NCBI RefSeq assembly: GCF_000013225.1
Contig: NC_007776.1
Location: forward strand, 2,424,501-2,488,500
Direction of reading: 5' to 3'
From: Synechococcus sp. JA-2-3B'a(2-13)
GTDB lineage: Bacteria; Cyanobacteriota; Cyanobacteriia; Thermostichales; Thermostichaceae
DNA length: 64,000 nt
Shown here in pieces: positions 46,226-59,788 of the stretch (position 1 is its first letter; every line of letters begins with the position of its first letter). The notes beneath the pieces are model-generated. The model searched no databases. It was not told the DNA's origin and worked only from the letters and a program-made list of their open reading frames with translations. The position numbers were made by a program, and so were the translations under genes.

Positions 46226-46567
46226 TTAAGATTGAGCCGTGGCCTTAGCAAAGGCTGCCTCGACCAGCGGACGCAGCTCGTTGCGGGCGTGCATCTCTTG
46301 GATGATGTCGCAACCGCCCACAAACTCCCCATCAATATAAATCTGCGGGATAGTAGGCCAGTTGGAAAACTCTTTAATCCCCTGGCGGATCTCAGGATCC
46401 TCGAGTACGTTAATCGCCGTGTAGGGGAAGCCCAAACTATCCAGCACACGAACGGCGGCATAGGAAAACCCACATTGGGGCATTTCCGGGGTGCCCTTCA
46501 TGTAGATGAGCACCTTGTGGGTGCGGATTTGCTCACGGATTTTCTCTTCCAAAAGGGGATCCAGCAT
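46226..46567 (-). CDS. grxD: Monothiol glutaredoxin (CGFS type, Grx4/GrxD)
   Basis: A 113-residue monothiol glutaredoxin. The active site is MPQCGFSYAAV near residue 29-39, KGTPEMPQ precedes it, and WPTIPQIYIDGEFVGGCDII is the glutathione-binding end. CGFS glutaredoxins bind [2Fe-2S] with glutathione and pair with BolA, whose gene follows. Start ATG 46567. Confidence 0.95.
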   Translation of the reverse strand: MLDPLLEEKIREQIRTHKVLIYMKGTPEMPQCGFSYAAVRVLDSLGFPYTAINVLEDPEIRQGIKEFSNWPTIPQIYIDGEFVGGCDIIQEMHARNELRPLVEAAFAKATAQS

Positions 46568-46858
46568 GGTGTTCAGCCACTATAGCGACAACAGTCGATA
46601 GGCAAACTGGCATCCTATCGAGATCTCATTTTCGTCTACTTTTAACATGCTCGACACTTTTCCCGCGGTTGGGCCGAGAGATTCTCTCATAGACTCTGTT
46701 CTACGGACGCCACCAGCAAGCCCCATTGCCCAGGGCTGGCCCAAGCCCCCAACCTATCCAGGCAGCGACCCCAGGATCCATGTTAATTTCTACACCAACA
46801 TGGTTAGCGACAGGGTCGGCGACAAACCTCAAACCCTGATTCTTCCGTTGACCCGGTC

Positions 46859-46998
46859 GATCCCGCTCTGGGCAAGGGTTTCAGGCCCCTCGGCGGAGAA
46901 AAATAAGGGGAAATTGCAGCCGTTCGCGCCAGCGGGACGGAGTCCTTAAACGAGACCCTGTCGATCTAGGCCCCTGGATCCCGCTCTGGGCAAGGGTT
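46859..46998 (+). repeat. 22-bp direct repeat in the CRISPR leader region
   Basis: GATCCCGCTCTGGGCAAGG plus GTT occurs exactly at 46859-46880 and again at 46977-46998, 118 bp apart. The second copy runs into TATAAT (46998-47003), a good -10 box 8 bp before the first CRISPR repeat. A dispersed AGCGGGACGGAGTCCTT copy lies between them at 46931-46947. Confidence 0.7.
46931..46947 (+). repeat. Dispersed AGCGGGACGGAGTCCTT repeat, copy 5
   Basis: A perfect copy of the 17-bp consensus, located in the putative CRISPR leader. Confidence 0.65.
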
Positions 46999-47068
46999 AT
47001 AATCGGGGGGAGTCGCTTCCCTTCGGGGAAGTGGAATTAATGGAAACGCTGTAATTAAATTTCAACCC

Positions 47069-48079
47069 ATGAAGTTTTTTGAAAAATACCTTACCGTTTG
47101 GGTCTCGCTATGCATTGCTGCAGGCATTGGTCTTGGGAAAATACTGGGGAATTCTGTTTCGGTGCTTGAAAGCTGGCAGATATATACCATCAACATTCCG
47201 GTAGCGGTGTTGGTTTGGATGATGATCTACCCGATGATGGTACAGATTGATTTTTCATCGATAGGCGGTGTTTCAAAAAATTGGAAAGGGCTGGCGCTGA
47301 CAGTTACTGTAAACTGGCTGATCAAACCTTTCACCATGGCATTGTTTGGATGGATTTTCTTTAAAAATCTGTATGCTACCTGGATCACTCCGGAAGATGC
47401 AGACCAGTACCTGGCAGGCGCCATTCTGCTGGGTGCCGCACCCTGCACAGCCATGGTGTTTGTGTGGAGTTATTTGGTAAGAGGCGATGCCAATTATACG
47501 TTAATACAAGTTTCAGTCAACGATCTTATTCTGCCGGTTGCATTTGTACCCATTGTAAAATGGCTGCTGGGAGTAACCAACATACAGATACCGTATGAAC
47601 TACTGATTACTTCGGTGGTTGTTTTTGTTGTTATACCGCTAACTACGGGTTATCTGACCAATCGGATATTGCTTCAACGAAAAGGAAAGGATTGGTTTGA
47701 ACAAAAATTTCTTCCGGCACTTCGTCCTGTTTCCATACTAGCATTGCTTTCAACCCTGGTTTTACTCTTTGCCTTTCAGGGCGAACACATACTGGATCAT
47801 CCATACACCATTTTGTTGATAGCCATACCACTGACCATTCAAACCTACTTCATATTCTTTATAACCTGGCTGGGTGGAAAATTGCTCCGTTTATCACATC
47901 CGGTTTGTGCACCGGCTGCGATGATTGGTGCCAGTAATTTTTTTGAACTCGCAGTTGCCGTGGCCATATCACTTTTTGGTCTTAATTCAGGTGCGTCGTT
48001 AGCCACGGTGGTTGGTGTACTCATAGAAGTACCCATCATGTTATCGTTGGTAGCCATCGCTAACAGTTGGAGGTATTAA
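47069..48079 (+). CDS. acr3: Arsenite efflux transporter ACR3
   Basis: A 336-residue membrane protein with ten predicted helices. Family marks are the conserved Cys-containing segment AGAILLGAAPCTAMVFVWSYL (about residues 117-137), SVNDLILPVAFVPIVKWLLG, and GASNFFELAVAVAISLFGLNSGASLATVVGVLIEVPIML near the end. ACR3 expels arsenite with the proton motive force. Start ATG 47069, 21 bp after the CRISPR repeat, with no clear ribosome binding site, as is usual in Bacteroidetes. The stop (TAA) abuts the arsC ATG. Composition is AT-rich and unlike the rest of the window. Confidence 0.95.
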   Translation: MKFFEKYLTVWVSLCIAAGIGLGKILGNSVSVLESWQIYTINIPVAVLVWMMIYPMMVQIDFSSIGGVSKNWKGLALTVTVNWLIKPFTMALFGWIFFKNLYATWITPEDADQYLAGAILLGAAPCTAMVFVWSYLVRGDANYTLIQVSVNDLILPVAFVPIVKWLLGVTNIQIPYELLITSVVVFVVIPLTTGYLTNRILLQRKGKDWFEQKFLPALRPVSILALLSTLVLLFAFQGEHILDHPYTILLIAIPLTIQTYFIFFITWLGGKLLRLSHPVCAPAAMIGASNFFELAVAVAISLFGLNSGASLATVVGVLIEVPIMLSLVAIANSWRY

Positions 48080-48496
48080 ATGAAAAAAATCTTGGTTTTA
48101 TGCACAGGTAATAGCTGCCGTAGTCAAATGGTACATGGTTATTTAGAAAATCTGTTACAAGGTAAAGCTCATATTTACAGTGCCGGTATTGAGATACATG
48201 GCGTAAATCCGAGAGCCATACAAATCATGAAGGAAGATGGAATTGATATCAGTCATCATACCAGCAACCATGTAAATGAATACTTAAACATACCCTTTGA
48301 TTACATCATCACGGTATGTGATCATGCCAGAGAAAACTGTCCGTACATACCAGGTAATTCCATTCGCATACATCATAGTTTTTCTGATCCTGACAAAGCA
48401 ACCGGAAGTGAAGAAGAAATTATGCATGCATTTCGTATGGTTCGAAATGAGATACGCACATTCTGCGAAGAATTTTCAAAGACTATCATTGCTTAA
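48080..48496 (+). CDS. arsC: Arsenate reductase, thioredoxin-coupled (LMW-phosphatase type)
   Basis: A 138-residue ArsC of the low-molecular-weight tyrosine-phosphatase fold. The N-terminal CTGNSCRSQM is the CX5R arsenate-binding loop (Cys near residue 8), and CDHARENCP (about 82-89) supplies the two Cys of the thiol relay used by pI258-type, thioredoxin-dependent enzymes. It reduces arsenate to arsenite, which ACR3 exports. The ATG directly follows the acr3 stop with GGAGG 6 nt upstream. Confidence 0.94.
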   Translation: MKKILVLCTGNSCRSQMVHGYLENLLQGKAHIYSAGIEIHGVNPRAIQIMKEDGIDISHHTSNHVNEYLNIPFDYIITVCDHARENCPYIPGNSIRIHHSFSDPDKATGSEEEIMHAFRMVRNEIRTFCEEFSKTIIA

Positions 48497-48520
48497 TCCT
48501 AGTAAGAAAACACAAACAAA

Positions 48521-48545
48521 AAAGCCCCGTAACCGGGGCTTTCTG
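48521..48545. terminator. Intrinsic terminator between arsC and the truncated T9SS gene
   Basis: AAAGCCCCGTAACCGGGGCTTT: an 8-bp stem with a 4-base loop, flanked by A-tract and T-rich sequence on both sides, suited to terminate both convergent transcripts. Confidence 0.85.
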
Positions 48546-48547
48546 AT

Positions 48548-49550
48548 TTATTTTACAACCATGATGCGTTGTGTTATCGCTTGTTTTCCGTCAGATATTC
48601 TAAGAAGATAAATTCCAGAAGACAATCCGTCTGTGATCAAAGTTATTTGCTGCTGAGATGGAGCAATGGTAAATTGCTGCAACACCTGACCCAGTGTTGT
48701 CATCAGTTCTCCTTTCAACGGTTCGGCAGAAGCCAATTGCAGAGCAATGGTAATCATATCAGTAGCCGGATTGGGATACACCAAAAAGTTGGAGGTATTC
48801 ATCACTTCATCCAGCGAAGAACAGTTAAGTACTGTAACCGATGCAGTGGCAGTTGCTGTACATCCGTTAGTAGCTGTGGCTGTAACGGTATAGGTAGTAG
48901 TGGATGCAGGGCTTACATTGATGGAAGCAGTATTAGCACCTGTATTCCAAGTAAAACTATTACCACCAGAAGCAGTAAGATTTACAGAGCTTCCCTGACA
49001 AATAGTACCGCCACCACTTATAGTAGGTGTGGGCAAAGGATTCACCACAATACTGGCTGTTGCCGTGTTTGTTCCGTTTAAATTGCTAGCTGTTAATGTT
49101 ACAGTATATGTCCCCGCTGAATTAAATGTTACAGTAGGACTGGCAGCCGTACTTGTTGAAGGAGTTCCGCCGGGGAAGGACCAGCTATAGGAAGTAGCAT
49201 TGGTAGATGTATTGGTAAATGTAATACTTTGCCCTGCACAGATGTTAGTTGATGAAACATTAAAAGAAGCGCTTGGTGGTGTATTGGTTGCAGCACTAAT
49301 GTTTATATCATCCAGATAAGTAACATTTCCCCATCCACTTCGCAATTGGAATCTGATTCCGGCGGCGGTTTGAGAAGCATACGGGCTTAAATCTATTGTC
49401 TTGGTTGCCCATTGTGATGGGGTAGGTACAAATGCAGTGGTCATATCAGGTGCTGTAGCCAATGGACTCGGGCCTGTATTATTACCATAAGATGCTAATC
49501 GTATCCAAGTATTGCCACAATCAGTGGTGATACTTACTATTAATGAATCA
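48548..49550 (-). pseudogene. 3' part of a PKD/T9SS-sorted secreted protein, truncated at the CRISPR repeat
   Basis: About 333 codons remain. From the cut end: a MAM-like jelly-roll stretch (DCGNTWIRLASYGNNTG ... FQLRSGWGNVTYLDDINIS), a PKD domain (PSASFNVSSTNICAGQSITFTNTS ... SYSWSFPGG ... GTYTVTLTASN), an Ig-like Thr/Ser-rich repeat and a C-terminal type IX secretion sorting domain (NFLVYPNPATDMITIAL ... GIYLLRISDGKQAITQRIMVVK). T9SS is known only in Bacteroidetes and relatives, so this gene is not cyanobacterial. The frame continues into repeat 2 and beyond, but that part translates the CRISPR repeat and is not genuine. The original 5' end is absent. Confidence 0.88.
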
Positions 49551-49659
49551 GTCGCTTCCCTTCGGGGAAGTGGAATTAATGGAAACTGGAAGGTGGAGAG
49601 GGGAGAGATGACGGATCGAGTGGTTGCTTCCCTTCGGGGAAGTGGAATTAATGGAAAAA

Positions 49660-50643
49660 TTAATGGAAACAAACCAAGTGATCCCCTTTCACTTCCAGCC
49701 AGTGCCCACCTGGATAATCGGGGCTACGGCTGCCTCGGTCTGCTTTTAAGAGCTGGATCCCGGCTTCTACCTGTTCAAAGGTGGGGTGGTGGGGCAACAC
49801 CAGGGACAAAAACTGGAACATTACCTGCCGCTGCAGAGCCAAGGGGGCAGCCCGCAAGGGATCCCGTCGCAGCCCTGGCAAAGCGGGCTCATATACCTGT
49901 GGCCATAGCTGAGCTGCTTGAGCTACCACCAGCTCATGTTCTGCTTGCAGCAGTGTGGCAGCCCGATTCAGGGCCGCTTCCAGTTGCGGGTTGAAGTGCT
50001 GTTTCAAGTAAGGCATCACCTCCAGGCGGAGACGGTTGCGGCCATGGGCCAGATCTTGGTTGCTGCGATCCGGCCAGACCGGCAATTGGTGCTGCTGGCA
50101 AAATTGTTCGGTTTCCCAACGGTATAGACCCAGCAGGGGTCGCACCACCTGGGCAGAGGTGGGATCCCGGTCGTCTAGGTGCCGCTGCCAATCCAGGCTG
50201 CTCAGCCCGGCGGCTCCTGTCCCTCGCAGCAAGTTCCATAAAAATGTCTCGGCCCGGTCGCTGGCCGTATGCCCCATCACCACGGCGCTGCAGTCCCAGG
50301 TGCGGGCCCATTTCTCCAGTTGTTGGTAGCGCCAAGCCCTGGCCCCTGCTTCGTCTCGGCGGATGGGATCCGCAGTCTCAACGGCATGAGGTAGTCCCTG
50401 CTGCTGCAGCCACCCCTGCAAAAAGCGGGCACACTCCGTTTCATCTGCCGACCAGCGGTGATCACAATGCAGAACAAATATCTGCCAGCCCCAGCGAGGC
50501 TGCAAATCCCGCAAGATCTGGAGCAGGCAAAAAGAATCTTGCCCGCCCGAAAAAGCCACCAGCAGTCGCTGGCCAGGGTGAAGAAGTTGCTGCTGCCGAA
50601 TGGCGCACTGTACCCGCAGGTGGAGAGGAGAGAGCCTGGCCAC
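49660..50643 (-). CDS. tilS: tRNA(Ile)-lysidine synthetase (TilS)
   Basis: A 327-residue enzyme that makes lysidine at the wobble position of the CAU anticodon of tRNA-Ile. Signature PP-loop is LLVAFSGGQDSFCLLQIL near residue 28, with the HCDHRWSADE and VVMGHTASDRAETFLWNLLRGTGAAGL motifs and RPLLGLYRWE. Start GTG 50643. The last residues and the TAA stop are encoded by the reverse complement of the duplicated end of the terminal CRISPR repeat, so the C-terminus was set by the array. Confidence 0.92.
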   Translation of the reverse strand: MARLSPLHLRVQCAIRQQQLLHPGQRLLVAFSGGQDSFCLLQILRDLQPRWGWQIFVLHCDHRWSADETECARFLQGWLQQQGLPHAVETADPIRRDEAGARAWRYQQLEKWARTWDCSAVVMGHTASDRAETFLWNLLRGTGAAGLSSLDWQRHLDDRDPTSAQVVRPLLGLYRWETEQFCQQHQLPVWPDRSNQDLAHGRNRLRLEVMPYLKQHFNPQLEAALNRAATLLQAEHELVVAQAAQLWPQVYEPALPGLRRDPLRAAPLALQRQVMFQFLSLVLPHHPTFEQVEAGIQLLKADRGSRSPDYPGGHWLEVKGDHLVCFH

Positions 50644-50696
50644 AGCTTGTTATTGCTCAGGTGCAACCCAGACCCTGCCTGCCTTCATGGGATCCC

Positions 50697-51866
50697 TTAG
50701 GCAAGAGCTCGGGTCAGATGAGAGGCCACCGCCTGCACAGCAGCAATGCTGCGCTCGTAGGCCATTCGGGTCGGCCCCAGCAAGGTGACCGTACCCAGAG
50801 GAGCCGAGCGACGGTGGTAAGTGGAGGCGATAACCGTGCAGTGGTGCAGAGACTCCAGTGGATTCTCGCTGCCAATGTAGATGATCACCGGGGTCTTGCG
50901 GGCAGACTGTCCTGACTCTTGATCCATCTCCGTTGAGCTCGGCAGAGGAGGCAGATACGCCAACTGCGGATCACCCCCATCGGCAAAATGGAGCCCAATC
51001 ATCCCCTGAAGTTGCTTGGCTCCCTCCTCGATCAACTGCATCACTGCCTGCACCTGCCGGGCCTGGGAAAACTCCGGCTGACGCATCAACTCGGCCATAC
51101 CGGCACTGAACACCTGCCCCAGAGAGGGCTGTAGACAGCGTTGCACCACCGAGCGCAGCAGTTGCTGGAGCCAATGGCCGTAGGTACGAAATTCTTCATC
51201 CAGTTTCAGCCAGCTCAGATCCTGCAACTCGGCAAAGGTTTTGCCCCGCAGCTTCAGGGTGAGAAAGTTGCTGAGCAATTGCAATTCATCTTCCAAATCC
51301 TCTCGGGAGTCGCTGGGCCAGTCGGGGGGGCTGACCAGAGCTGAATGGGTTTGATAGGAGTCGGTTACCACCAACACCATCACCCGCCCTGGCGCTACCG
51401 ACACCAACTGCACATGATGAATGGCTACCACCGGCCCCTGAGGAGGAGTAATGAGAGCAATGCAACCGCTCAGATGGGCCAAAAGCTGAGCTACCCTTTG
51501 CAGGAGGCTGTCTAGGTCGTCTCCCAGCTCACGGCCAAGCTGATCCATCAACTGTTGCAGAGCGGGATGGGGATCCGGCTGAGGAGCATCGTGGGGGATC
51601 CCACCGCTGTTGGCAGAGGTCAACAAATCGTTGACATAAACCCGATAGCCAAAGTCGGAAGGAACCCGTCCGGCGGAGGTGTGAGGCTGAAACAGCAATC
51701 CCACTTGCTCAAGGGTGGCCAAGTCGTTGCGAATGGTGGCCGTGCTTACCCCAAAGTTGTAGGACTGGGCCAAGGTTTTGGAACCGACAGGTTCAGCTGT
51801 AGCAATGTAGCTACGCACTGTCGCCCAGAGAATCTTCCGCTGGCGGGGAGTCAGTTCGAGTTTCAT
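50697..51866 (-). CDS. hrcA: Heat-inducible transcription repressor HrcA
   Basis: A 389-residue repressor. The N-terminal winged helix has LTPRQRKILWATVRSYIATAEPVGSKTL and YNFGVSTATIRNDLATLEQVGLLFQPHTSAGRVPSDFGYR. The C-terminal IDVD/GAF-like region includes IIYIGSENPLESLHHCTVIASTYHRRSAPLGTVTLLGPTRMAYERSI. HrcA represses groESL/dnaK operons by binding CIRCE. I see no CIRCE element in the window. Its start ATG 51866 is isolated; it ends 53 bp before tilS begins. Confidence 0.95.
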   Translation of the reverse strand: MKLELTPRQRKILWATVRSYIATAEPVGSKTLAQSYNFGVSTATIRNDLATLEQVGLLFQPHTSAGRVPSDFGYRVYVNDLLTSANSGGIPHDAPQPDPHPALQQLMDQLGRELGDDLDSLLQRVAQLLAHLSGCIALITPPQGPVVAIHHVQLVSVAPGRVMVLVVTDSYQTHSALVSPPDWPSDSREDLEDELQLLSNFLTLKLRGKTFAELQDLSWLKLDEEFRTYGHWLQQLLRSVVQRCLQPSLGQVFSAGMAELMRQPEFSQARQVQAVMQLIEEGAKQLQGMIGLHFADGGDPQLAYLPPLPSSTEMDQESGQSARKTPVIIYIGSENPLESLHHCTVIASTYHRRSAPLGTVTLLGPTRMAYERSIAAVQAVASHLTRALA

Positions 51867-52293
51867 AGCCGATCAAAAGAACCCAGTCAACGCCTATCAA
51901 AGGAAACTGTTAATACAGAGCCGGTAAATTGCTCCAGGATAAACCAACTCAGAGCTGAGATAGGAATCCAGACAGACTTTTACATCTTCTAATCTATATG
52001 CATCTATTGTTACTCTTTATATAGCGGGTTGCCTAGGAAGGAAGTTGCAAAACCCGATGTCGGAAGAGGTTGAGACTGCTGCTTGTGCAGGAGAGAGTGA
52101 AATCTCTTGTAGCCTGGGCTCCCCTTTTTTGCCCAGAGGTGGTAGAAGATGAACTACGGCTAGCCACCTTGTTGCGTAGCAACAGTCCGCTGCGCCAAGA
52201 CTGGGGATTTCTGCGCATGAGTTCGGTCAACTCTAGGCCAACTGGGCCTGCTGCTGTCCTCTTTGTATCCTTTTTTATCTTTGAGGTTGCCCC
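51867..52293. other. Intergenic region upstream of ureA and hrcA
   Basis: About 430 bp between divergent hrcA and ureA. Short frames on both strands are unconvincing. There is an AT-rich patch near 51980-52030. No clear NtcA site (GTA-N8-TAC) was found ahead of ureA by eye. Confidence 0.4.
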
Positions 52294-52596
52294 ATGTACT
52301 TATCCCCCCAGGAGAAAGACAAGTTGTTGATCTACCTGGCTGCCCAGTTGGCTCGGGATCGGCGGCAGCGGGGCCTCAAACTCAATTACCCTGAGGCGGT
52401 GGCCTACTTGAGCGCAGCAGTCTTGGAAGGGGCGCGGGAGGGGAAAACAGTCGCCCAATTGATGAGCGAGGGGCTGACGTGGCTGACCCGCGAGGACGTA
52501 ATGCCCGGGATCCCAGAGATGATCCCGGAAATTCAAGTGGAGGCTACTTTCCCCGACGGAACCAAGCTGGTTACCCTACACCATCCCATTCGCTAG
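52294..52596 (+). CDS. ureA: Urease subunit gamma (UreA)
   Basis: A 100-residue subunit, [57 protein letters not shown], followed by [30 protein letters not shown]. Complete for the gamma family. It forms the urease complex with UreB and UreC, hydrolysing urea. ureB follows 49 bp later; ureC is not in this window. Confidence 0.96.
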
Positions 52597-52645
52597 GGAT
52601 CCCCCAGATGCTCCAAAGACCCAGAGACTTCAGGAGGTCGTCCCC

Positions 52646-53068
52646 ATGGCTCGCCAATCCAGAACCAACCCTGCTGCCAACGCAGAGCCGGCCCTGATCC
52701 CAGGGGAACTGTTGCTGGCAGAGGATCCCATCCAAGCCAACGTCGGACGGGCCACCGTGACCCTGGAGGTTACCAACCGAGGGGATCGGCCCATTCAGGT
52801 GGGATCCCATTTTCACTTTTTTGAGGTGAACCGAGCCCTGGTTTTCGATCGCGCCGCCAGCTTTGGCATGCGCCTCAACATCCCTTCCGGCAATGCGGTG
52901 CGTTTTGAGCCAGGCCAAACCCATCGGGTGACGCTGGTGGCTTTGGGGGGCAAGGGGTTGGTGCATGGCTTCAATCGGCTCACGGAGGGTACGGTACGCT
53001 CTGCCGCCCAAAAGCGGCTGGCCCTGGCCCGATTGCAGGAGTGGATGGGTCAAGCAGCCAATCCCTAG
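52646..53068 (+). CDS. ureB: Urease subunit beta (UreB)
   Basis: A 140-residue subunit with the core [85 protein letters not shown] typical of UreB. It has an 18-residue N-terminal extension relative to the usual start. Start ATG 52646. Confidence 0.96.
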
Positions 53069-53189
53069 GGAGTACCGCCCCCCCCAAGTGTGCAGCTTTG
53101 GGCAGCCGTGCCAAGGTTCAACCCCATCCCCGTCTCTGCTCAGATTCAGGACAGTAGGGCTATCCTATTTCTCCTCTAGGAGCTGACAG

Positions 53190-53444
53190 ATGTCAGAGCG
53201 CGAGACTGTCTTGTGGATGTGGGTGCAAGGCTTGGGGCTAAATCTTTCTGGGTTGGCGCTGTTGGCAGCAGCAGGCGCCGCCTTTGGGCCTCTCAGTTGG
53301 ACAGGTGCAACGGTGGCGGTGATGTTGAAGCTCATTGGGGATAGCCAACTGGTGCGGGGCTACTGGCTCTGGCAAAGCCAGCGGCAACAGAAGGGATCCC
53401 AGCCCGTCAGCTCAGCAGCGGCAGTGCTCCACAGTCAAGCTTGA
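53190..53444 (+). CDS. Small two-helix membrane protein
   Basis: An 84-residue protein with two hydrophobic segments (about 8-30 and 36-50) and a Gln/Ser-rich tail. Start ATG 53190 with AGGAG upstream. It follows ureB by 121 bp on the same strand. Unknown family. Confidence 0.6.
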   Translation: MSERETVLWMWVQGLGLNLSGLALLAAAGAAFGPLSWTGATVAVMLKLIGDSQLVRGYWLWQSQRQQKGSQPVSSAAAVLHSQA

Positions 53445-53539
53445 GACATTGCCCGGCACTTGTCCGGTCTCCGACTCGAGAATGCCAACGCGACCACCCC
53501 TACTCCCTTCTGGCACTGGCAAGCCTCACTGTACAAGCC

Positions 53540-55975
53540 TCACTGTAAATGAGCCACGGTCACTCCAGTACCGCCGTCTTCGGGATCAGCGGCTGAAAAA
53601 CGCTGAACGCGCGGGTGATTTTGGAGATAAGCCTGGACGCCGGCTTTCAGGCGCCCTGTGCCGTGGCCGTGGATGATCCAAACCGGGCCGGGAGGAGCTT
53701 GGGCAAAGTGCTGTTCCAGAATGGCCTCAGCATCAGCAACGGTTTTCCCCCTCAGATCGAGGGTGTTCTGGCTGGTGCGCAGGTTCAGGGGAGCGGTGGC
53801 TGCAGGGGAGGGAGGTGGGGCTTTGGGGCGTTGGCGTTGCTTAGCCTGGTGTTCGTCAATGGGATCCAACTGCCCCCGTGGCACTGTGAATTTGAGGATG
53901 CCGCTGCGCACCACATACACATCCCCTTCGATGGCGATCACTTCCCCCGTCTGACCCAAGCCTCTCAGCCGCACCCGATCTCCCACCTCTGGCACAAACT
54001 CCATATCCACGGGCGGCGGTGGGGGAGAGTAGCGCTGCTGGATTTGCGCCAGCTCGGCAGTAATGCGTTGGGGATCCTCTCCCTGCTGCAATCTGCGGAT
54101 GGCGGCAGCCACTTCCTGACGGGCAGCAGCCAACAGGGCTTGCAGTTCTTGGTTTTGCTTCTGCTCCAGCCGGGCTTCTCGCTCGGCGATTTGGCGGCTA
54201 CGCTGTTGCATTTGTTGATATAGGCTCTCCAGCTCTCGATGCAGGGATCCCACCTGGGCCGCCCGCTCTTCCAATTGAGCCCGCTGCGCTTCCAGGCCGG
54301 CAATGACCCTATCCACCTGGCTTTCCCCTTGCAGGTGCCGCTGGGCCCGCCGCAGAATCTCTGGATCCAACTGCAGCCGTTGGGCAATGGCCAAGGCGTT
54401 GGAGCGGCCTGGGATCCCCCACAAGAGGCGATAGGTGGGGGCCAGGGTGACCTCGTCGAACTCCACCGAGGCATTTTCAAAGCAGGGATGTTGGTATTTC
54501 AGGGCCTTTAGCTCGCCGTAGTGGGTGGTAGCCAGGGTGAGCAGTGCCCTTTCCGAGAGGTACTCCAATAGCCCAGCCGCCAGGGCAGCGCCTTCGGTGG
54601 GATCCGTGCCCGCCCCCACCTCATCCAACAGGACAAGGGCCGGCTCCGGAGCAGACTGCAGGGCCTGCACGATGCGGCTGATGCGGCGGATGTGCCCCGA
54701 AAAGGTGGAGAGATTTTGTTGCAGCGACTGCTCGTCCCCAATGTCGGCGTAAACCCCGTCGAACCAAGGCAGCTGGGGCGGATCCTGAGCCGGCAGGAAG
54801 ATCCCCGCCTTGGCCATGAGCACCAGCAGGCCCAGGGTTTTCAGGGCAACGGTTTTGCCGCCGGTGTTGGGGCCGGTGATAACCACGACACGAATGGAGT
54901 CCGCGAGGGTGAAGTCGATAGGGACAACGGCAGAGCCTTGACCCTCCGAAGGGGCGGCGGCGCGGGACTGCCAGAGCAGCAGGGGGTGCTTGGCCTGACG
55001 CAGGCGCAATCCTGCCGAGACAAACTGGGGACGATTGCCCTCCAGCCAGAGGCTGTAGCGACCCCGAGCCAGAGCCACATCCAACCCCACCATCACCCCC
55101 TGCAGATGCTCCAGATCGGTGGCCACGGCTGCCACCTGAGCCGAGAGCGCGGCTAAGATCCGCTCTTCCTCCGCCTGAATCTGAACTTGGGTTTCTCGCC
55201 AGCGGTTGCCCAGTTCCACCACGGCGTAGGGCTCCACATAGAGGGTGGCCCCACTGGCAGAGCTGTCATGCACAATGCCGCGGATGAGATCCCGATGGGT
55301 GGCCTTGACCATCAGGACAAACCGCCCCTGCCGCTGGCCAATCAGGGTATCCTGCAGCGCCTGGGGATACTGGCTCATCAATTGTTGCAGCTGCTCTTGG
55401 ATCTGGCTGCGTTGCCGCCGCTGCTGCTGGCGCAGATCCGCAAGGGTAGGGCTGGCGCTGTCCCGCACCTCGCCATGTTCCTCCAGGCAGCGGAAGATCT
55501 CCTGCTCCAGCTCCGGGTAGGTGCGCAGGGTGCTCACCCAAGTTTGCAAGCGTGGCAGATGGTCGTGGTCGTCGATCAGGCGGCGGATGCGGCGGGCTGC
55601 CCCCAGAGTTGTAGCGATCTGCACCAGCTCTTCCCCGCTCAGGATCCCCCCCCGTTCGGCCCGTTCCAAAGCCGGCAGCAAGTTGTGGATCCCTGCCATA
55701 GAAAGTCCCCCGGCCTGTGTGCGATCGAGGCGGATCGCCTCTTCCGTCTGCTCAAGGTAGGCTTCGCTGTCGGCGCGGCTCTGCCAGGGATCCAGCTCCA
55801 AGCAGGCGCGGCGGCCCAAGGGTGTGGCCGCAAAGGTGGCCAAGTGCTGACAAAGGCGGGGCCACTCCAGCAATTCCAAGGTTTCTTGCCGTTCGCCTTG
55901 GCAGGCCGTAGGCCTTGGGGAGGGATCGGGCTTGGAGAAGACTGGCAGCGGGTGCAAGGTGGGGACGGTGGGCAT
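53540..55975 (-). CDS. mutS2: Endonuclease MutS2
   Basis: An 811-residue MutS-family ATPase with the Smr endonuclease domain. Walker A is VVITGPNTGGKTVALKTLGLLVLMAKAG near 366, followed by ADIGDEQSLQQNLSTFSGHI near 412, Walker B LVLLDEVGAGTDPTEGAALA near 448, a coiled-coil clamp, a KOW-like segment (VGDRVRLRGLGQTGEVIAI) and the C-terminal Smr domain LDLRGKTVADAEAILEQHF ... VWIIHGHGTGRLKAGVQAYL. MutS2 suppresses homologous recombination and rescues collided ribosomes in other bacteria. Last gene of a minus-strand pair with the small gene upstream. Confidence 0.95.
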   Translation of the reverse strand: MPTVPTLHPLPVFSKPDPSPRPTACQGERQETLELLEWPRLCQHLATFAATPLGRRACLELDPWQSRADSEAYLEQTEEAIRLDRTQAGGLSMAGIHNLLPALERAERGGILSGEELVQIATTLGAARRIRRLIDDHDHLPRLQTWVSTLRTYPELEQEIFRCLEEHGEVRDSASPTLADLRQQQRRQRSQIQEQLQQLMSQYPQALQDTLIGQRQGRFVLMVKATHRDLIRGIVHDSSASGATLYVEPYAVVELGNRWRETQVQIQAEEERILAALSAQVAAVATDLEHLQGVMVGLDVALARGRYSLWLEGNRPQFVSAGLRLRQAKHPLLLWQSRAAAPSEGQGSAVVPIDFTLADSIRVVVITGPNTGGKTVALKTLGLLVLMAKAGIFLPAQDPPQLPWFDGVYADIGDEQSLQQNLSTFSGHIRRISRIVQALQSAPEPALVLLDEVGAGTDPTEGAALAAGLLEYLSERALLTLATTHYGELKALKYQHPCFENASVEFDEVTLAPTYRLLWGIPGRSNALAIAQRLQLDPEILRRAQRHLQGESQVDRVIAGLEAQRAQLEERAAQVGSLHRELESLYQQMQQRSRQIAEREARLEQKQNQELQALLAAARQEVAAAIRRLQQGEDPQRITAELAQIQQRYSPPPPPVDMEFVPEVGDRVRLRGLGQTGEVIAIEGDVYVVRSGILKFTVPRGQLDPIDEHQAKQRQRPKAPPPSPAATAPLNLRTSQNTLDLRGKTVADAEAILEQHFAQAPPGPVWIIHGHGTGRLKAGVQAYLQNHPRVQRFSAADPEDGGTGVTVAHLQ

Positions 55976-55982
55976 TAACCAT

Positions 55983-56153
55983 TCAGCGATGCAAGGAACC
56001 CTGGAGACGCAGTTGCTTCATCTCTTGCAAAAACTGCTGTTGATACTTGAGGAAGGCAGTGTGCCACTCGCGGAAGCGACGTTCGCCATCCCGCACCAGC
56101 ATCTGGCGGTACTGCTCTGAGTTGAGACGGGGCTGAGCAAAAGATGGGTTCAT
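55983..56153 (-). CDS. Small basic helical protein upstream of mutS2
   Basis: A 56-residue protein, MNPSFAQPRLNSEQYRQMLVRDGE, then RRFREWHTAFLKYQQQFLQEMKQLRLQ and a short end. It starts at ATG 56153 and stops 7 bp before the mutS2 start, so it is probably co-transcribed. The pattern of helical amphipathic residues is plausible for a real small protein. Family not recognised. Confidence 0.6.
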   Translation of the reverse strand: MNPSFAQPRLNSEQYRQMLVRDGERRFREWHTAFLKYQQQFLQEMKQLRLQGSLHR

Positions 56154-56311
56154 AGGGATCGGGGACGCTCTCCATCCTATTGTGGCAGGCTCTGGGTCGG
56201 CTTCCACAGATAGCTTTTGGTGAGAGGGGCACGCTGATAATGGCGCCGTTGTCTCACGCGCTGCCTCTGGTGATCTTCCCAAGAAGCTGAGCTCACCGAA
56301 AAACTGGGTTC

Positions 56312-56336
56312 AAAGCCCCGCCCTACCGCTGTGGGG
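56312..56336 (+). repeat. Dispersed AAGCCCCGCCCT element, copy 4
   Basis: AAAGCCCCGCCCTACCGC followed by TGTGGGG matches the copy at 8446-8470 (minus strand) except for one base. It lies in the divergent intergenic region between the small gene at 55983-56153 and the NIL-ferredoxin. Confidence 0.6.
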
Positions 56337-56448
56337 TTCGCCTTGGGTGTCCTGTGGAGGGTGGAAGTGAGCTGCATTCACGGCCAAACTGAACCTCACA
56401 AGCCTGCCATACTGAAGGAAGTTGCTGCACTCAAAACACTCAAGATCC

Positions 56449-56853
56449 GTGCGCAAACGAGTCACCCTCATTTTCCCCCGCCATTTGGTGAATGTGCCTC
56501 TCACCTATCGGTTGGCCAAAGACTTCGATGTGGCTGCCAATATCGTGCGCGCCAGGGTAGCCCCCAACGAAGTGGGTACTTTGGTGGTGGAGCTGTCGGG
56601 GGATATCGACCAGGTGGAAGCAGGATTGGAATGGGTACAGTCTTTGGGCATTGAGGTGACTGAACGGGCCAAGGAAATTCAAATCGACCCAGACTTGTGC
56701 GTGGACTGTGGATTGTGTACGGGAGTTTGCCCAACCGAGGCCTTGAAGATTTCTGCTCCCAACTGGAAGCTGGAGTTCTCTCGCAACCGCTGTGTCATGT
56801 GCGAACAGTGTGTTGCCACCTGCCCCGTTGGGGCGATCAGCACCAGTTTGTAG
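56449..56853 (+). CDS. NIL-domain 4Fe-4S ferredoxin
   Basis: A 134-residue protein: an N-terminal NIL domain (RVTLIFPRHLVNVPLTYRLAKDFDVAANIVRARVAPNEVGTLVVELSG) followed by two 4Fe-4S motifs, CVDCGLCTGVCP (near 93) and CVMCEQCVATCP (near 122). NIL domains are otherwise found in methionine ABC transporters, and the NIL-ferredoxin fusion is common in cyanobacteria. The GTG at 56449 gives the usual length; a TTG at 56422 would add nine residues. Confidence 0.88.
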   Translation: MRKRVTLIFPRHLVNVPLTYRLAKDFDVAANIVRARVAPNEVGTLVVELSGDIDQVEAGLEWVQSLGIEVTERAKEIQIDPDLCVDCGLCTGVCPTEALKISAPNWKLEFSRNRCVMCEQCVATCPVGAISTSL

Positions 56854-56965
56854 TCAGTTGGCCGAGTTACCGACTTCCTTCAGCCGACAAATCTCTTCAC
56901 AATGCCGTTAACAATGCTGTTAGACTTGTTGGACACAGGTCAAATAGCTGCAGGACGCACTCGAC

Positions 56966-57187
56966 ATGGCTTCTACTCCATCGTTGATCGGGTTAACTTA
57001 TGCCGGTTTGGCTGTTCTCTATCTGCTGGTGCTGCCTCTGTTGTCTCTGCTGTACGTGGACAAACGCTGGACTTCAGGCAGTGCTTGGGAAAAGGTGCTG
57101 ATGTTTTTCTTGGTCTTGTTTTTCTTTCCCGGCATGGTGCTCTTGGCTCCCTTCATGACGTTTCGGCCCAAGCCCCGGTCGCTGTAA
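56966..57187 (+). CDS. ndhL: NAD(P)H-quinone oxidoreductase subunit L (NdhL)
   Basis: A 73-residue membrane subunit specific to oxygenic phototrophs. It begins MASTPSLIGLTYAGLAVLYLL with two hydrophobic helices and the conserved YVDKRWTSGSAWEKVLMFFLVLFFFPGMVLLAPF(M). Needed for NDH-1 dependent CO2 uptake and cyclic electron flow in cyanobacteria. A DUF3007 gene follows 28 bp later. Confidence 0.95.
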   Translation: MASTPSLIGLTYAGLAVLYLLVLPLLSLLYVDKRWTSGSAWEKVLMFFLVLFFFPGMVLLAPFMTFRPKPRSL

Positions 57188-57215
57188 GGTCAGCCGTTTG
57201 TCGGTTCACTGAGCC

Positions 57216-57551
57216 ATGCGCAGATTGGATGTTCTTGCTATAGGCTTAGCCCTGCTGTTGGGGGGAGGGATCCTCTATGGCCTGCTGCTTTGGGCGGGCT
57301 TGGATACGAGGGCCGCGCAGCAGATATCGAGCGTGGTGCTTCTATTGGCCTGCTTGGGGTGGACTTTTGGCTACCTGAAGCGGGTGCTGCGTGGGGAAAT
57401 GACCCTGAAGGCTCAATGGGCCAGCTTCGAGACCCAGCAGATTCAAGAGAGGCTCCGCTCCCTCTCCCCAGAAGAGTTGCAGGCCCTGCAAGCTGAATTG
57501 GAAAGCGAGAAAGAAGGGATCCCAGATTGGGTTGAGCAGGAGAAACATTGA
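57216..57551 (+). CDS. DUF3007-family membrane protein
   Basis: A 111-residue protein with two transmembrane helices (VLAIGLALLLGGGILYGLLLWAG and QISSVVLLLACLGWTFGYL), then FRVLRGEMTL-like basic part and a helical C-terminus (RSLSPEELQALQAELE). The family is shared by cyanobacteria and chloroplasts and often sits beside ndhL. Start ATG 57216. Confidence 0.85.
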   Translation: MRRLDVLAIGLALLLGGGILYGLLLWAGLDTRAAQQISSVVLLLACLGWTFGYLKRVLRGEMTLKAQWASFETQQIQERLRSLSPEELQALQAELESEKEGIPDWVEQEKH

Positions 57552-57733
57552 GGCCATTGGACAGGCCGCACCCAGAAATGGGCTGTCGGCTGCTGGGGAT
57601 CCAGGTTTAAGGGTATGGAGCGTCGGGCTTAAACCGCAATACTTGTATATCTGTATATCCGGTTACCATTTGCTTCCCCTAAGAATGCTACATTGCGCCC
57701 CGCACAAGATTCTGGCGTACGACGGATTATTAA

Positions 57734-58390
57734 GTGGTGCAAGCCTTTGCCTTTCCTTCTACTCGCATATCTCCATCCACTGTGAGAAAAACCATACTGC
57801 TAGCTCAGGGCCAGCCCTTGCAATCTCATCTCTGGCAGTTGGGGCTGGAGTCTCAGGGGCACTCTGTGGTGCCGATTTCCCCACGTGAAGATCTGCTGGA
57901 GGTGGCAGCAAGTCAGCCTCTGGATTTGGATCTGATGGTGGTGGACATGACGACGGGGCTGTTTAACCCCTATGCCTTTTGTCGAGAGTGTCAAAGCAAG
58001 CTGCCCAACATCCCTGTTATCCTGACTCATCACCCCCGCCGCCACATCGAGCCCGCAGAGCGGCGCTGGGCAATCTACCAGGGGGCAGCAGATGTGATCC
58101 CTGGCTTGGCGGAGGCCGGCGACCTTCTCCACTCCCTCGAACGGATTTACGAGGCTGCCAGGTGGTTTTTGCCTATTGACACGGAGGCGCTCCACAGGGC
58201 TCTGAAGCAAGCGGGCTTATGGCCGGCGGAGGTCAGCCGTACATCTTCTTCCACCCCTCCCCCGCAGCCGAGCGCCCACTCTCCCACCGCCCCTCCACAA
58301 CCCATCACCGCGGAAGGGGATCCAGGGCAAAAAGACTTGACCCCGCAGGTGAAGTACCGACTGATGTACCGGGGTCGCCCTGTCGATTGA
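57734..58390 (+). CDS. Receiver-like (pseudo-response-regulator) protein with DUF4278-like tail
   Basis: A 218-residue protein. The N-terminal two-thirds looks like a degenerate CheY-like receiver (ILLAQGQPLQSHLWQLGLESQGHSVVPISP ... LDLDLMVVDMTTGLFNPYAFCRECQSKLPNIPVILTHHP ... GAADVIPGLA), with Asp in VVDM in place of a phospho-acceptor position, followed by a Pro/Ser-rich linker and a C-terminal YRLMYRGRPVD that resembles the YRG motif of DUF4278. Start GTG 57734 or GTG 57782. Signalling role inferred only. Confidence 0.65.
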   Translation: MVQAFAFPSTRISPSTVRKTILLAQGQPLQSHLWQLGLESQGHSVVPISPREDLLEVAASQPLDLDLMVVDMTTGLFNPYAFCRECQSKLPNIPVILTHHPRRHIEPAERRWAIYQGAADVIPGLAEAGDLLHSLERIYEAARWFLPIDTEALHRALKQAGLWPAEVSRTSSSTPPPQPSAHSPTAPPQPITAEGDPGQKDLTPQVKYRLMYRGRPVD

Positions 58391-58663
58391 GGTACTCGTT
58401 CCAACCTGCCGTCACTCGTTTTTCCTCGTAGCTTCTCGTAGCTTCTTGCCCTGCCAGGGTTGAGCTGCCGATTGGCAACGAGCAGGATGCAATCGCTGCA
58501 GCCCCGGGCAGCAGTGTATGGCCTCGCCATGCAAGCTACCCGTCTTGTTCAGCGTCAATGTATCAGCGAAGTCTGCTGGCAGAAATTGTGGAATGGATCA
58601 CCTGGCCAGCAGAGGGGCCTGCAGAACTGATAGAGTTTTGGCACCTCTGCCTTCCCATTGCCC
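58391..58663. other. Intergenic region upstream of nadK
   Basis: About 270 bp with no recognised gene or hairpin. Confidence 0.4.
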
Positions 58664-59587
58664 ATGACCAAGCCCAAAGCCGGGATCCTCTACAACGACG
58701 CCAAACCCGCCGCCAAACGCAGCAGCGAAACCCTAGCCCGCTGGTTTCAGGAGCAGGGCTGGGAAGTCTGTGTGGCCCCCAACTGGGGCGGTATCCTCGG
58801 TTATGCCAAGCCCGACAGCCCCATCTGCCTGACCAAAGTAGATAGCCTGGCCCCGGCTGGATTTGATCAAACCATGAAGTTTGCGGTGGTGTTGGGGGGA
58901 GATGGCACCGTCTTGGCAGCAGCACGGCAACTGGCCCCCAAAGGGATCCCCTTGTTGGCGGTGAATACGGGCCATCTGGGCTTTCTGACGGAGACCTACC
59001 TTCCTCACCTAGAAGAGGCAGCCAGTGCCGCCATTGCCGGGGAATACACCCTGGATCGCCGCAGCATGTTGCTGGTGCAAGCCTACCGAGGGCAAGAATT
59101 GCGCTGGGAGGTCTTGAGCTTAAACGAGATGGTGCTGCACCGCGAGCCTTTGACCAGCATGTGCCACTTCGAGATCACCATCGGGGATCACTCACCTCTG
59201 GATGTGGCTGCCGACGGAGTCATCTTGGCTACTCCCACCGGCTCGACGGCCTATGCCCTCTCGGCGGGTGGGCCGGTGATCACACCGGGGGTGCCGGTTT
59301 TGCAGCTGATTCCCATCTGCCCCCATTCCATGGCGTCGCGGGCCTTGGTCTTCCCCGATTCGGAGGAGGTATGGATTAGCCCCGTTACCCCTCAGCCACT
59401 GGTTTTGGTGGTAGATGGAAATGCCGGCTGCTACATCATGCCGGAAGACCAGATTCGGGTGGTACGTGCCCCCTATTGGACAGATTTGATGCGCCTGCGC
59501 CGACCGGAATTTTTCCGGGTTATGCGAGAGAAGTTGGGGTGGGGACTGCCCCACGCTTCCAAGCCCACGTCGGTGGAGTTGCCTTAA
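58664..59587 (+). CDS. nadK: NAD kinase
   Basis: A 307-residue ATP-NAD kinase. Signature [38 protein letters not shown] near residue 70, LNEMVLHRE near 153, and the C-terminal [40 protein letters not shown] near 180. Makes NADP from NAD. Start ATG 58664. Confidence 0.94.
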
Positions 59588-59677
59588 CTTTGCCGAGGCA
59601 GGACAAGCCATAGCTGCAAAATGGCCAATGCCCTTAACAACTCCACCCCTCTGTCGCTATGATGGTTAGGCTCGGAA

Positions 59678-59758
59678 GCGGATGTGGCGGAATTGGTATA
59701 CGCGCACGTTTGAGGGGCGTGTGGCTTTGCCTTGCGAGTTCGAGTCTCGCCATCCGCA
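59678..59758 (+). tRNA. tRNA-Leu (GAG)
   Basis: Acceptor stem GCGGATG (59678-59684) pairs with CATCCGC (59751-59757), followed by discriminator A. The anticodon stem CACGT/GCGTG encloses TTGAGGG, giving anticodon GAG, reading CUC/CUU. The variable arm is long (class II) and the T-loop GAGTTCGAGTCTC is canonical. CCA is not encoded. Confidence 0.94.
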
Positions 59759-59788
59759 TTACGCAATTAGTACGCGTTATTCATTAGT

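What the first reader, a model, noticed from the sequence alone, without database searches (positions are those of the whole stretch)
47012..49586. A 2.5-kb Bacteroidetes-like arsenic-resistance segment sits between two CRISPR repeats
Repeats 1 and 2 are identical, including a GTCGC variant not shared by the terminal repeat. What lies between them is not a spacer but 2503 bp starting and ending exactly at repeat boundaries: acr3, arsC, a terminator, and a T9SS-sorted gene cut at the second repeat. Seen directly: repeats, genes, cut ORF, change of composition. Known: CRISPR adaptation duplicates the leader-proximal repeat, and T9SS sorting domains belong to Bacteroidetes; arsenic is common in hot springs. 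Inference: a giant capture by the adaptation machinery, recombination using repeats, or an assembly join of two organisms. If real, a CRISPR array would have been a landing site for a selectable operon, which I have not seen described.
Basis: partly seen in the sequence, partly recalled or inferred. Interest (0 to 1): 0.93.

Follow-up and report, generated by a model that had tools for sequence, protein, structure and literature searches.

The report
Arsenic genes captured in CRISPR array
In a complete hot-spring cyanobacterium genome, a 2.5-kb piece of Bacteroidetes-type DNA carrying two predicted arsenic-resistance genes lies in a CRISPR array exactly where a short spacer belongs, likely inserted by the CRISPR integrase itself, which would make CRISPR adaptation a route by which bacteria gain whole genes.

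Summary
At 47012-49658 a CRISPR array reads leader, repeat 1, 2,503 bp, repeat 2, 36-bp spacer, degenerate repeat 3; repeats 1 and 2 are identical. The genome is a single contig whose other arrays match published coordinates of Synechococcus JA-2-3B'a(2-13), an isolate, so a metagenome-bin chimera is unlikely. A Bacteroidia genome (G244) aligns to insert bases 1-2502 at 74%: the insert is one contiguous chromosomal slice (end of an ArsI/CadI-type gene, acr3, an arsC-type gene, last third of a convergent T9SS gene), cut inside genes at both ends, without terminal inverted repeats. A relative (G002) has the same leader joined to one repeat before tilS. In six other arrays of this genome the 117 gaps found are 33-47 bp. 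Best reading: adaptation-type (Cas1-Cas2) integration of a gene-sized fragment at the leader-proximal repeat. The integrase step is inferred: the apparent cognate cas1 is truncated here; a sister cas1-cas2 with a similar leader motif is intact. Recombination through repeats is the main rival. The genome has no other close Acr3. No precedent appeared in the searches named. New variant of a known kind; read-level proof is needed.

The parts
46226..46567 (-). monothiol glutaredoxin gene, left chromosomal flank
   Evidence: TIGR00365 148.5 bits; this side is 92% identical in G002:C13
46774..47011 (+). CRISPR leader, ending TTATAATCGGGGGGA at repeat 1
   Evidence: 97-98% identical copies before a repeat at G000:C1:380101-380491 and 591142-591415; a similar end before a repeat in G002, G004, G006, G007
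47012..47047 (+). CRISPR repeat 1 (leader-proximal)
   Evidence: predicted to fold to a hairpin with a UUCG loop
47048..49550 (.). 2,503-bp foreign insert in spacer position 1
   Evidence: positions 1-2502 aligned to Bacteroidia G244:C80 at 74%; composition
47048..47058 (+). last 11 bp, stop included, of a cut gene matching the 3' end of an ArsI/CadI-type gene
   Evidence: alignment with G244 and G378; the G244 gene hits NF041414 ArsI/CadI
47069..48079 (+). acr3, predicted arsenite efflux transporter, 336 aa, intact
   Evidence: TIGR00832 391 bits; PF01758
48080..48496 (+). arsC-type gene, predicted thioredoxin-type arsenate reductase, 138 aa, intact
   Evidence: PF01451; TIGR02691 best but below cut-off; 99% and 96% relatives, the second named arsenate reductase by its source
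48519..48544 (.). two-way terminator-like hairpin between the convergent genes
48548..49549 (-). C-terminal 333 aa of a T9SS-sorted PKD protein, cut by repeat 2
   Evidence: PF18962, PF00801; 82% identical to residues 671-1003 of the 1003-aa protein of G244
49551..49586 (+). CRISPR repeat 2, identical to repeat 1
49587..49622 (+). normal 36-bp spacer
   Evidence: no exact match of its inner 29 bases in viral contigs
49623..49658 (+). terminal degenerate repeat 3
   Evidence: 2 mismatches and a following partial copy of the repeat end, as in G002
49660..50643 (-). tilS, right chromosomal flank
   Evidence: TIGR02432 170 bits; 92% identical next to leader and single repeat in G002:C23

Best explanation
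A contiguous 2,503-bp slice of Bacteroidia-type chromosomal DNA, with complete predicted acr3 and arsC-type genes and the cut ends of both neighbouring genes, occupies the first spacer position of a CRISPR array in a complete Synechococcus genome, and was likely put there by a Cas1-Cas2 integrase that joined a gene-sized fragment, instead of a prespacer of about 36 bp, to the leader-proximal repeat and so duplicated that repeat. Shown: the anatomy, the exact 36-bp repeat duplication, the leader-proximal place, the contiguous foreign origin, the leader with a single repeat and no insert in a relative. Inferred: (1) linear Bacteroidetes DNA entered the cell; (2) its two ends were joined to opposite strands at the two borders of repeat 1, perhaps as two half-site reactions, and gap filling made the second repeat; (3) the enzyme was either the cognate Cas1-Cas2 of this repeat, whose cas1 is now truncated here, or the intact sister Cas1-Cas2 at 867.8 kb acting on a similar leader; (4) the operon, which came without its upstream regulator gene, would be read from the CRISPR leader, and arsenic selection would have kept it in a genome that has no other close Acr3.
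For: Repeat 1 = repeat 2 exactly; leader immediately to the left; degenerate terminal repeat to the right, so the insert sits where new spacers enter. G244 matches insert positions 1-2502 in one piece, and the native reading continues past both borders in G244 and G378, so both ends lie inside genes with no leftover of an older spacer. No inverted repeats at the ends: longest shared 5 bases, reached by 419 of 500 random internal pairs. The three long non-overlapping ORFs are acr3, an arsC-type gene and a T9SS fragment, none a recombinase. Array without the insert: G002:C23 has leader, one repeat, tilS. The insert's Acr3 is in 1 of 8 family genomes (own); the best in the other 7 are 49-51% identical, apart from a 52-residue piece at 69% in G007. 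Spacing is otherwise normal: 117 gaps in six own arrays, 33-47 bp (repeats within 9 mismatches); 132 gaps of the same repeat family in G005, 34-48 bp. Intact cas1 and cas2 at 867.4-868.7 kb; the leader there ends GGGTTTAATAGGGGTAGA, ours GGGTTATAATCGGGGGGA. Precedent for size: the Cas1-family casposase of A. boonei integrated 1.2-kb DNA with terminal repeats, and less efficiently a bla gene without them, in vitro (PMC7786333, passages).
Against: Cas1-Cas2 measures its substrates: trimming to one size was needed for full-site integration in the Megasphaera system (PMC10284694, passages). The cas1 most like those of the two genomes with multi-spacer arrays of this repeat keeps only about 75 codons in this genome. 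Use of the sister Cas1 on this leader rests on resemblance alone. One clean case only; a second long gap (G000 591416-592144) is older and ambiguous. The left flank of the G002 array differs from ours by a rearrangement, and leaders here share sequence among loci. No reads were seen. The donor's own sequence, and so any PAM, is unknown: the closest match over the whole length is 74%.
Confidence: 0.6

Rival explanations
1. Recombination through repeats: a molecule that already carried the 2.5 kb next to one copy of this repeat, for example a circle or another array, crossed over with the array by homology.
For: Leader and repeat copies exist at several places, and the three leaders of this genome share a 118-bp unit absent from the two G002 leaders aligned, so they seem to exchange sequence. 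Two of these places are joints of a rearrangement against G002.
Against: It needs an earlier event that put Bacteroidetes DNA exactly beside this cyanobacterial repeat. G244 and G378 continue natively where the insert ends, with no repeat there. No exact 31-base core of the repeat in viral contigs; plasmids and metagenomes were not searched for it.
Confidence: 0.18
2. Assembly or culture artefact: Bacteroidetes DNA from the culture was joined into the finished genome.
For: Composition is Bacteroidetes-like; no reads were available; 99% Acr3 and ArsC relatives exist in public assemblies.
Against: One contig of 3,046,682 bases, called fully sequenced in PMC5017753 (passages). Both joins fall exactly on borders of the same repeat, in the position and orientation that adaptation uses. 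A false join would need the repeat on both sides of the foreign DNA.
Confidence: 0.08
3. An undescribed mobile element that targets CRISPR repeats and makes a 36-bp duplication.
For: Exact target-site-like duplication.
Against: No recombinase among the three long ORFs scanned (short overlapping ORFs were not scanned), no inverted ends, ends inside two different genes of the source.
Confidence: 0.04
4. End-joining repair: a break in the array trapped a stray fragment.
For: Both ends of the insert look random.
Against: Simple repair of a break does not duplicate precisely one repeat unit; no remnant of an older spacer is left at either side.
Confidence: 0.08

Closest known systems
CRISPR spacer acquisition by Cas1-Cas2
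   Same: Leader-proximal position, exact duplication of the first repeat, foreign source DNA.
   Different: 2,503 bp instead of 33-48 bp; chromosomal genes rather than a short protospacer; would not be expected to act as a normal guide.
Casposon integration (Cas1-family casposase)
   Same: Kilobase DNA joined by a Cas1-type enzyme with duplication of the target site; A. boonei casposase integrated 1.2-kb DNA in vitro (PMC7786333, passages).
   Different: No terminal inverted repeats, no cas1 in the insert; the duplication is the 36-bp CRISPR repeat, against 14-15 bp.
Insertion sequences within CRISPR arrays (recalled)
   Same: Large DNA inside an array.
   Different: No transposase among the ORFs scanned; borders are the repeat borders, not a point inside a repeat or spacer.
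Integron gene cassettes (recalled)
   Same: Promoterless genes would be read from a fixed upstream promoter.
   Different: No integrase among the ORFs scanned; attC sites were not searched; the landing site is a CRISPR repeat.
ACR3-ArsC arsenic operons of Bacteroidia
   Same: Gene order acr3, arsC, then the convergent T9SS gene as in G244 and G378.
   Different: The ArsR-type regulator and most of the ArsI/CadI-type gene that precede acr3 in G244 are absent.

Membership tests
CRISPR array | Direct repeats of a known array family in one orientation with a leader | tested here: met
   Three repeats; leader copies; 133-repeat array of the same family in G005
Complete CRISPR-Cas system | Intact cognate cas genes in the genome | tested here: not met
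   The cas1 nearest to those of G005 and G007 keeps about 75 codons in G000; that they are cognate rests on co-occurrence. Filed as an orphan array only
CRISPR spacer | Duplication of the leader-proximal repeat | tested here: met
   Repeats 1 and 2 identical, next to the leader
CRISPR spacer | Uniform short length | tested here: not met
   2,503 bp against 33-47 bp in 117 own gaps; so it is not filed as a spacer
CRISPR spacer | Exact foreign protospacer with PAM | tested here: inconclusive
   Contiguous foreign source shown at 74%; the true donor and its flanks were not found
Casposon | Terminal inverted repeats | tested here: not met
   Longest shared 5 bases, as chance
Casposon | Own cas1 gene | tested here: not met
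   The only Cas1 matches in G000 lie at 572.9 and 867.8 kb, not in the insert
Insertion sequence or transposon | Transposase gene | tested here: not met
   Three long ORFs scanned with Pfam; short overlapping ORFs not scanned
Integron cassette | attC site | not tested
   no search made
ACR3 family arsenite transporter | Match above the curated cut-off | tested here: met
   TIGR00832 391.4 bits, cut-off 282.8
Thioredoxin-type ArsC (TIGR02691) | Match above the curated cut-off | tested here: not met
   148.2 bits, cut-off 174.3; called arsC-type from its operon, its best model and relatives named so by their sources

The most novel reading that the evidence does not exclude
CRISPR adaptation can work as a gene-capture system: Cas1-Cas2 integrates gene-sized foreign DNA at the leader, the leader promoter reads the promoterless cargo as part of the pre-crRNA, and here it gave an arsenite pump to a cyanobacterium that has no other close Acr3. 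Orphan arrays whose effector is gone, served by a sister integrase, would be where such captures survive.
Probability: 0.3. Interest if true: 0.95.

Novelty: new variant of a known kind. Interest (0 to 1): 0.83.

Why it matters
If the integrase did this, the size limit of CRISPR adaptation is not absolute in nature, and CRISPR arrays can serve as landing sites for useful genes, a bridge between spacer acquisition and the casposon-type transposition from which Cas1 is thought to derive. It is directly testable with two Cas1-Cas2 pairs from sequenced genomes. It also suggests a cheap survey: look for arrays with kilobase gaps that hold genes, which spacer-finding programs would be expected to pass over.

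Tried and rejected
Metagenome-bin chimera: set aside, one contig of an isolate. Insert as a plasmid piece: 46 plasmid records matched, 0 with 80% of the query; the 20 of 46 listed match within the acr3 part at 63-70% identity; one unlisted record has a best place in the 80-90% band. Phage origin: 14 IMG/VR loci encode an Acr3 relative, best full-length one 59% identical. Repeat core and spacer in viral contigs: 0 exact matches each. Intact T9SS gene of the true donor: best relative of our fragment 83% (only 7,992 candidates were scored), so not found. Capture by reverse transcription of one mRNA: disfavoured, because the genes converge on a terminator-like hairpin. A sigma-70-type promoter at the leader end: the scan listed none there on the + strand; the TATAAT at 46998-47003 is read by eye, so the leader promoter is inferred. 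The second long gap beside type III-D genes (L035, L031) was weighed as another capture, but the segment is shared by G000 and G002 and its repeats are diverged, so it is left open. An ArsB in this genome: best hit 18.6 bits, under the cut-off of 22.2. I did not test whether arsC or acr3 is expressed or works.

Literature: nine of the ten paper searches looked for precedents or for this locus (one search asked about arsenic in the springs). Going by titles and abstract openings in the listings, none is about kilobase inserts between CRISPR repeats; one search listed 20 of 150 papers. Most subscription papers are not in that library.

Full report
What is there. The window holds, from left to right: a monothiol glutaredoxin gene, a CRISPR leader (46774-47011), repeat 1 (47012-47047), 2,503 bp (47048-49550), repeat 2 (49551-49586), a 36-bp spacer (49587-49622), repeat 3 (49623-49658) and tilS. 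Repeats 1 and 2 are identical; repeat 3 differs at 2 of 36 positions and is followed by a partial copy of the repeat end, as is the single repeat of relative G002. The repeat is predicted to fold to a hairpin.

Which genome. The window is part of a single contig of 3,046,682 bases. Heidelberg et al. 2009 (PMC2612747, passages) list arrays of the isolate Synechococcus OS-B' (JA-2-3B'a(2-13)) ending at 867,185 (IIA) and starting at 156,596 (IID) and 2,016,367 (IIG); the arrays I read in G000 have these same borders. PMC5017753 calls this genome fully sequenced (passages). So this is not a metagenome bin. In the passages that I read, the 2009 paper counts two Type I and four Type II arrays for OS-B' and does not list the array of this window.

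The insert. It differs from the host in GC (42.1% against 59.0%), in lacking GGATCC sites and in tetranucleotide use (0.051 against 0.014-0.020 for 23 host windows). Its three long non-overlapping ORFs encode Acr3, an ArsC-type protein and the C-terminal 333 residues of a T9SS-sorted PKD protein. In genome G244 the order is an ArsR-type regulator, an ArsI/CadI-type gene, acr3, arsC, and a convergent 1003-aa T9SS gene; blastn aligns insert positions 1-2502 to it in one piece at 74%. G244 was drawn from the class of G008, the genome of locus L042, which is titled Flavobacteriales; that this class is Bacteroidia is recalled. G378 matches in two pieces, 76% and 74%. At both borders the native reading continues in G244 and G378 past the place where our insert stops. 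The left border lies 11 bp before the end of the ArsI/CadI-type gene, the right border cuts the T9SS gene. The insert therefore looks like a random slice of a chromosome, with no element borders. Its ends share no inverted repeat beyond chance. Near-identical relatives of both proteins exist: Acr3 99% (4 differences in 336; cluster of 75 members, longest contig 243,674 bases) and ArsC 99% (12 members). These clusters seem to include the window's own proteins, their sources are not shown, and which organisms hold the other members could not be seen.

The site without the insert. In G002 (92% identical around tilS) the same leader is joined to one repeat and then tilS. Its left flank is that of another CRISPR leader of G000 (380 kb), and its glutaredoxin gene lies elsewhere next to the 380-kb right flank without a leader: a rearrangement has exchanged flanks at these leaders in one of the lineages. 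The three leaders of G000 share a 118-bp unit that the two G002 leaders lack. So recombination between leaders seems to occur, which is the main support for the rival reading.

Is the length exceptional? In six other arrays of G000 the 117 gaps between neighbouring repeats (found within 9 mismatches) measure 33-47 bp. In G005, which has 133 repeats of our repeat family, the 132 gaps measure 34-48 bp. A gap of 2,503 bp is far outside both.

The machinery. A search for Cas1 in G000 gives one complete gene at 867.8 kb and a fragment at 572.9 kb. The fragment is about 90% identical over 75 residues to Cas1 of G005:C67 and G007:C17, the genomes with multi-spacer arrays of our repeat family, and 62% to the complete gene. 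By family models G005:C67 has cas2 beside cas1 and G007:C17 a Cmr2-type Cas10; similar ORFs stand on the other contig too. No repeat of our family was found on these two contigs, so their link to our repeat is by co-occurrence. The complete sister locus has cas1, cas2 and a gene with a sub-threshold Cmr6 match; its leader ends in a motif like ours. Hence either the insertion predates the loss of the cognate cas1, or the sister enzyme did it.

Mechanism. In a type II system Cas1-Cas2 joins the first end at the leader-repeat border, then the second at the repeat-spacer border, with half-site intermediates (PMC6895254, passages). A long linear DNA whose two ends were joined in this way would give exactly the observed structure. 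Against it stands the size ruler (PMC10284694, passages). For it stands that the related casposase integrates 1.2-kb DNA with terminal repeats, and less efficiently a bla gene without them, in vitro (PMC7786333, passages). I put 0.6 on adaptation-type integration.

Function. Of the 8 family genomes, G000 has no second close Acr3 (next hit 24% identical), G002 and G003 show none, G001, G004, G005 and G006 have one at 49-51% identity to the insert's, and G007 shows a 52-residue piece at 69%. ArsB is not above its cut-off in G000. So the insert plausibly supplies the arsenite pump of this strain; other exporters were not searched, and expression and activity were not tested. The genes that precede acr3 in the G244 operon, regulator included, are missing; reading from the CRISPR leader is inferred. 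The promoter scan lists no + strand pair there.

Verdict. Observation confirmed; artefact readings mostly set aside; the most likely process is a known reaction on a substrate some 70 times too long.

Noticed in passing
G000:C1:591416-592144 (L035 3417-4145) and G002:C71 (L031 2926-3450): A second long gap between two repeats of this family, 729 bp and 525 bp, holding an unassigned ORF (167 aa in G000; no Pfam, NCBIfam or PADLOC match) beside type III-D cas genes; shared by both genomes, repeats diverged. Perhaps an older capture, perhaps two neighbouring solo repeats.
   Followed up: partly
G000:C1:572913-573188 and 574991-575026: A truncated cas1 (about 75 codons kept), then a helicase-like ORF (by eye, not scanned) and a short ORF that runs into a solo CRISPR repeat: likely remains of a lost type III-B locus.
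   Followed up: partly
G000:C1:380101-380493, 591142-591415, window 46774-47047: Three near-identical copies of a CRISPR leader plus repeat in one genome; two of them lie at the joints of a flank exchange relative to G002.
   Followed up: partly
G000:C1:1692611-1692646, G002:C83:40561-40596, G004:C52:44381-44416: Repeats of this family standing alone, without spacers; the G004 copy has a leader-like end before it.
   Followed up: no
G005:C19, about 50009-59761: Array of 133 repeats of this family running almost to the contig end; ORFs on the preceding 20 kb were listed but not scanned for cas genes.
   Followed up: no
window 47040-47054: The repeat end plus the first insert bases read ATG GAA ACG CTG TAA, four codons and a stop shortly before the acr3 start; possible help for translation, untested.
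   Followed up: no
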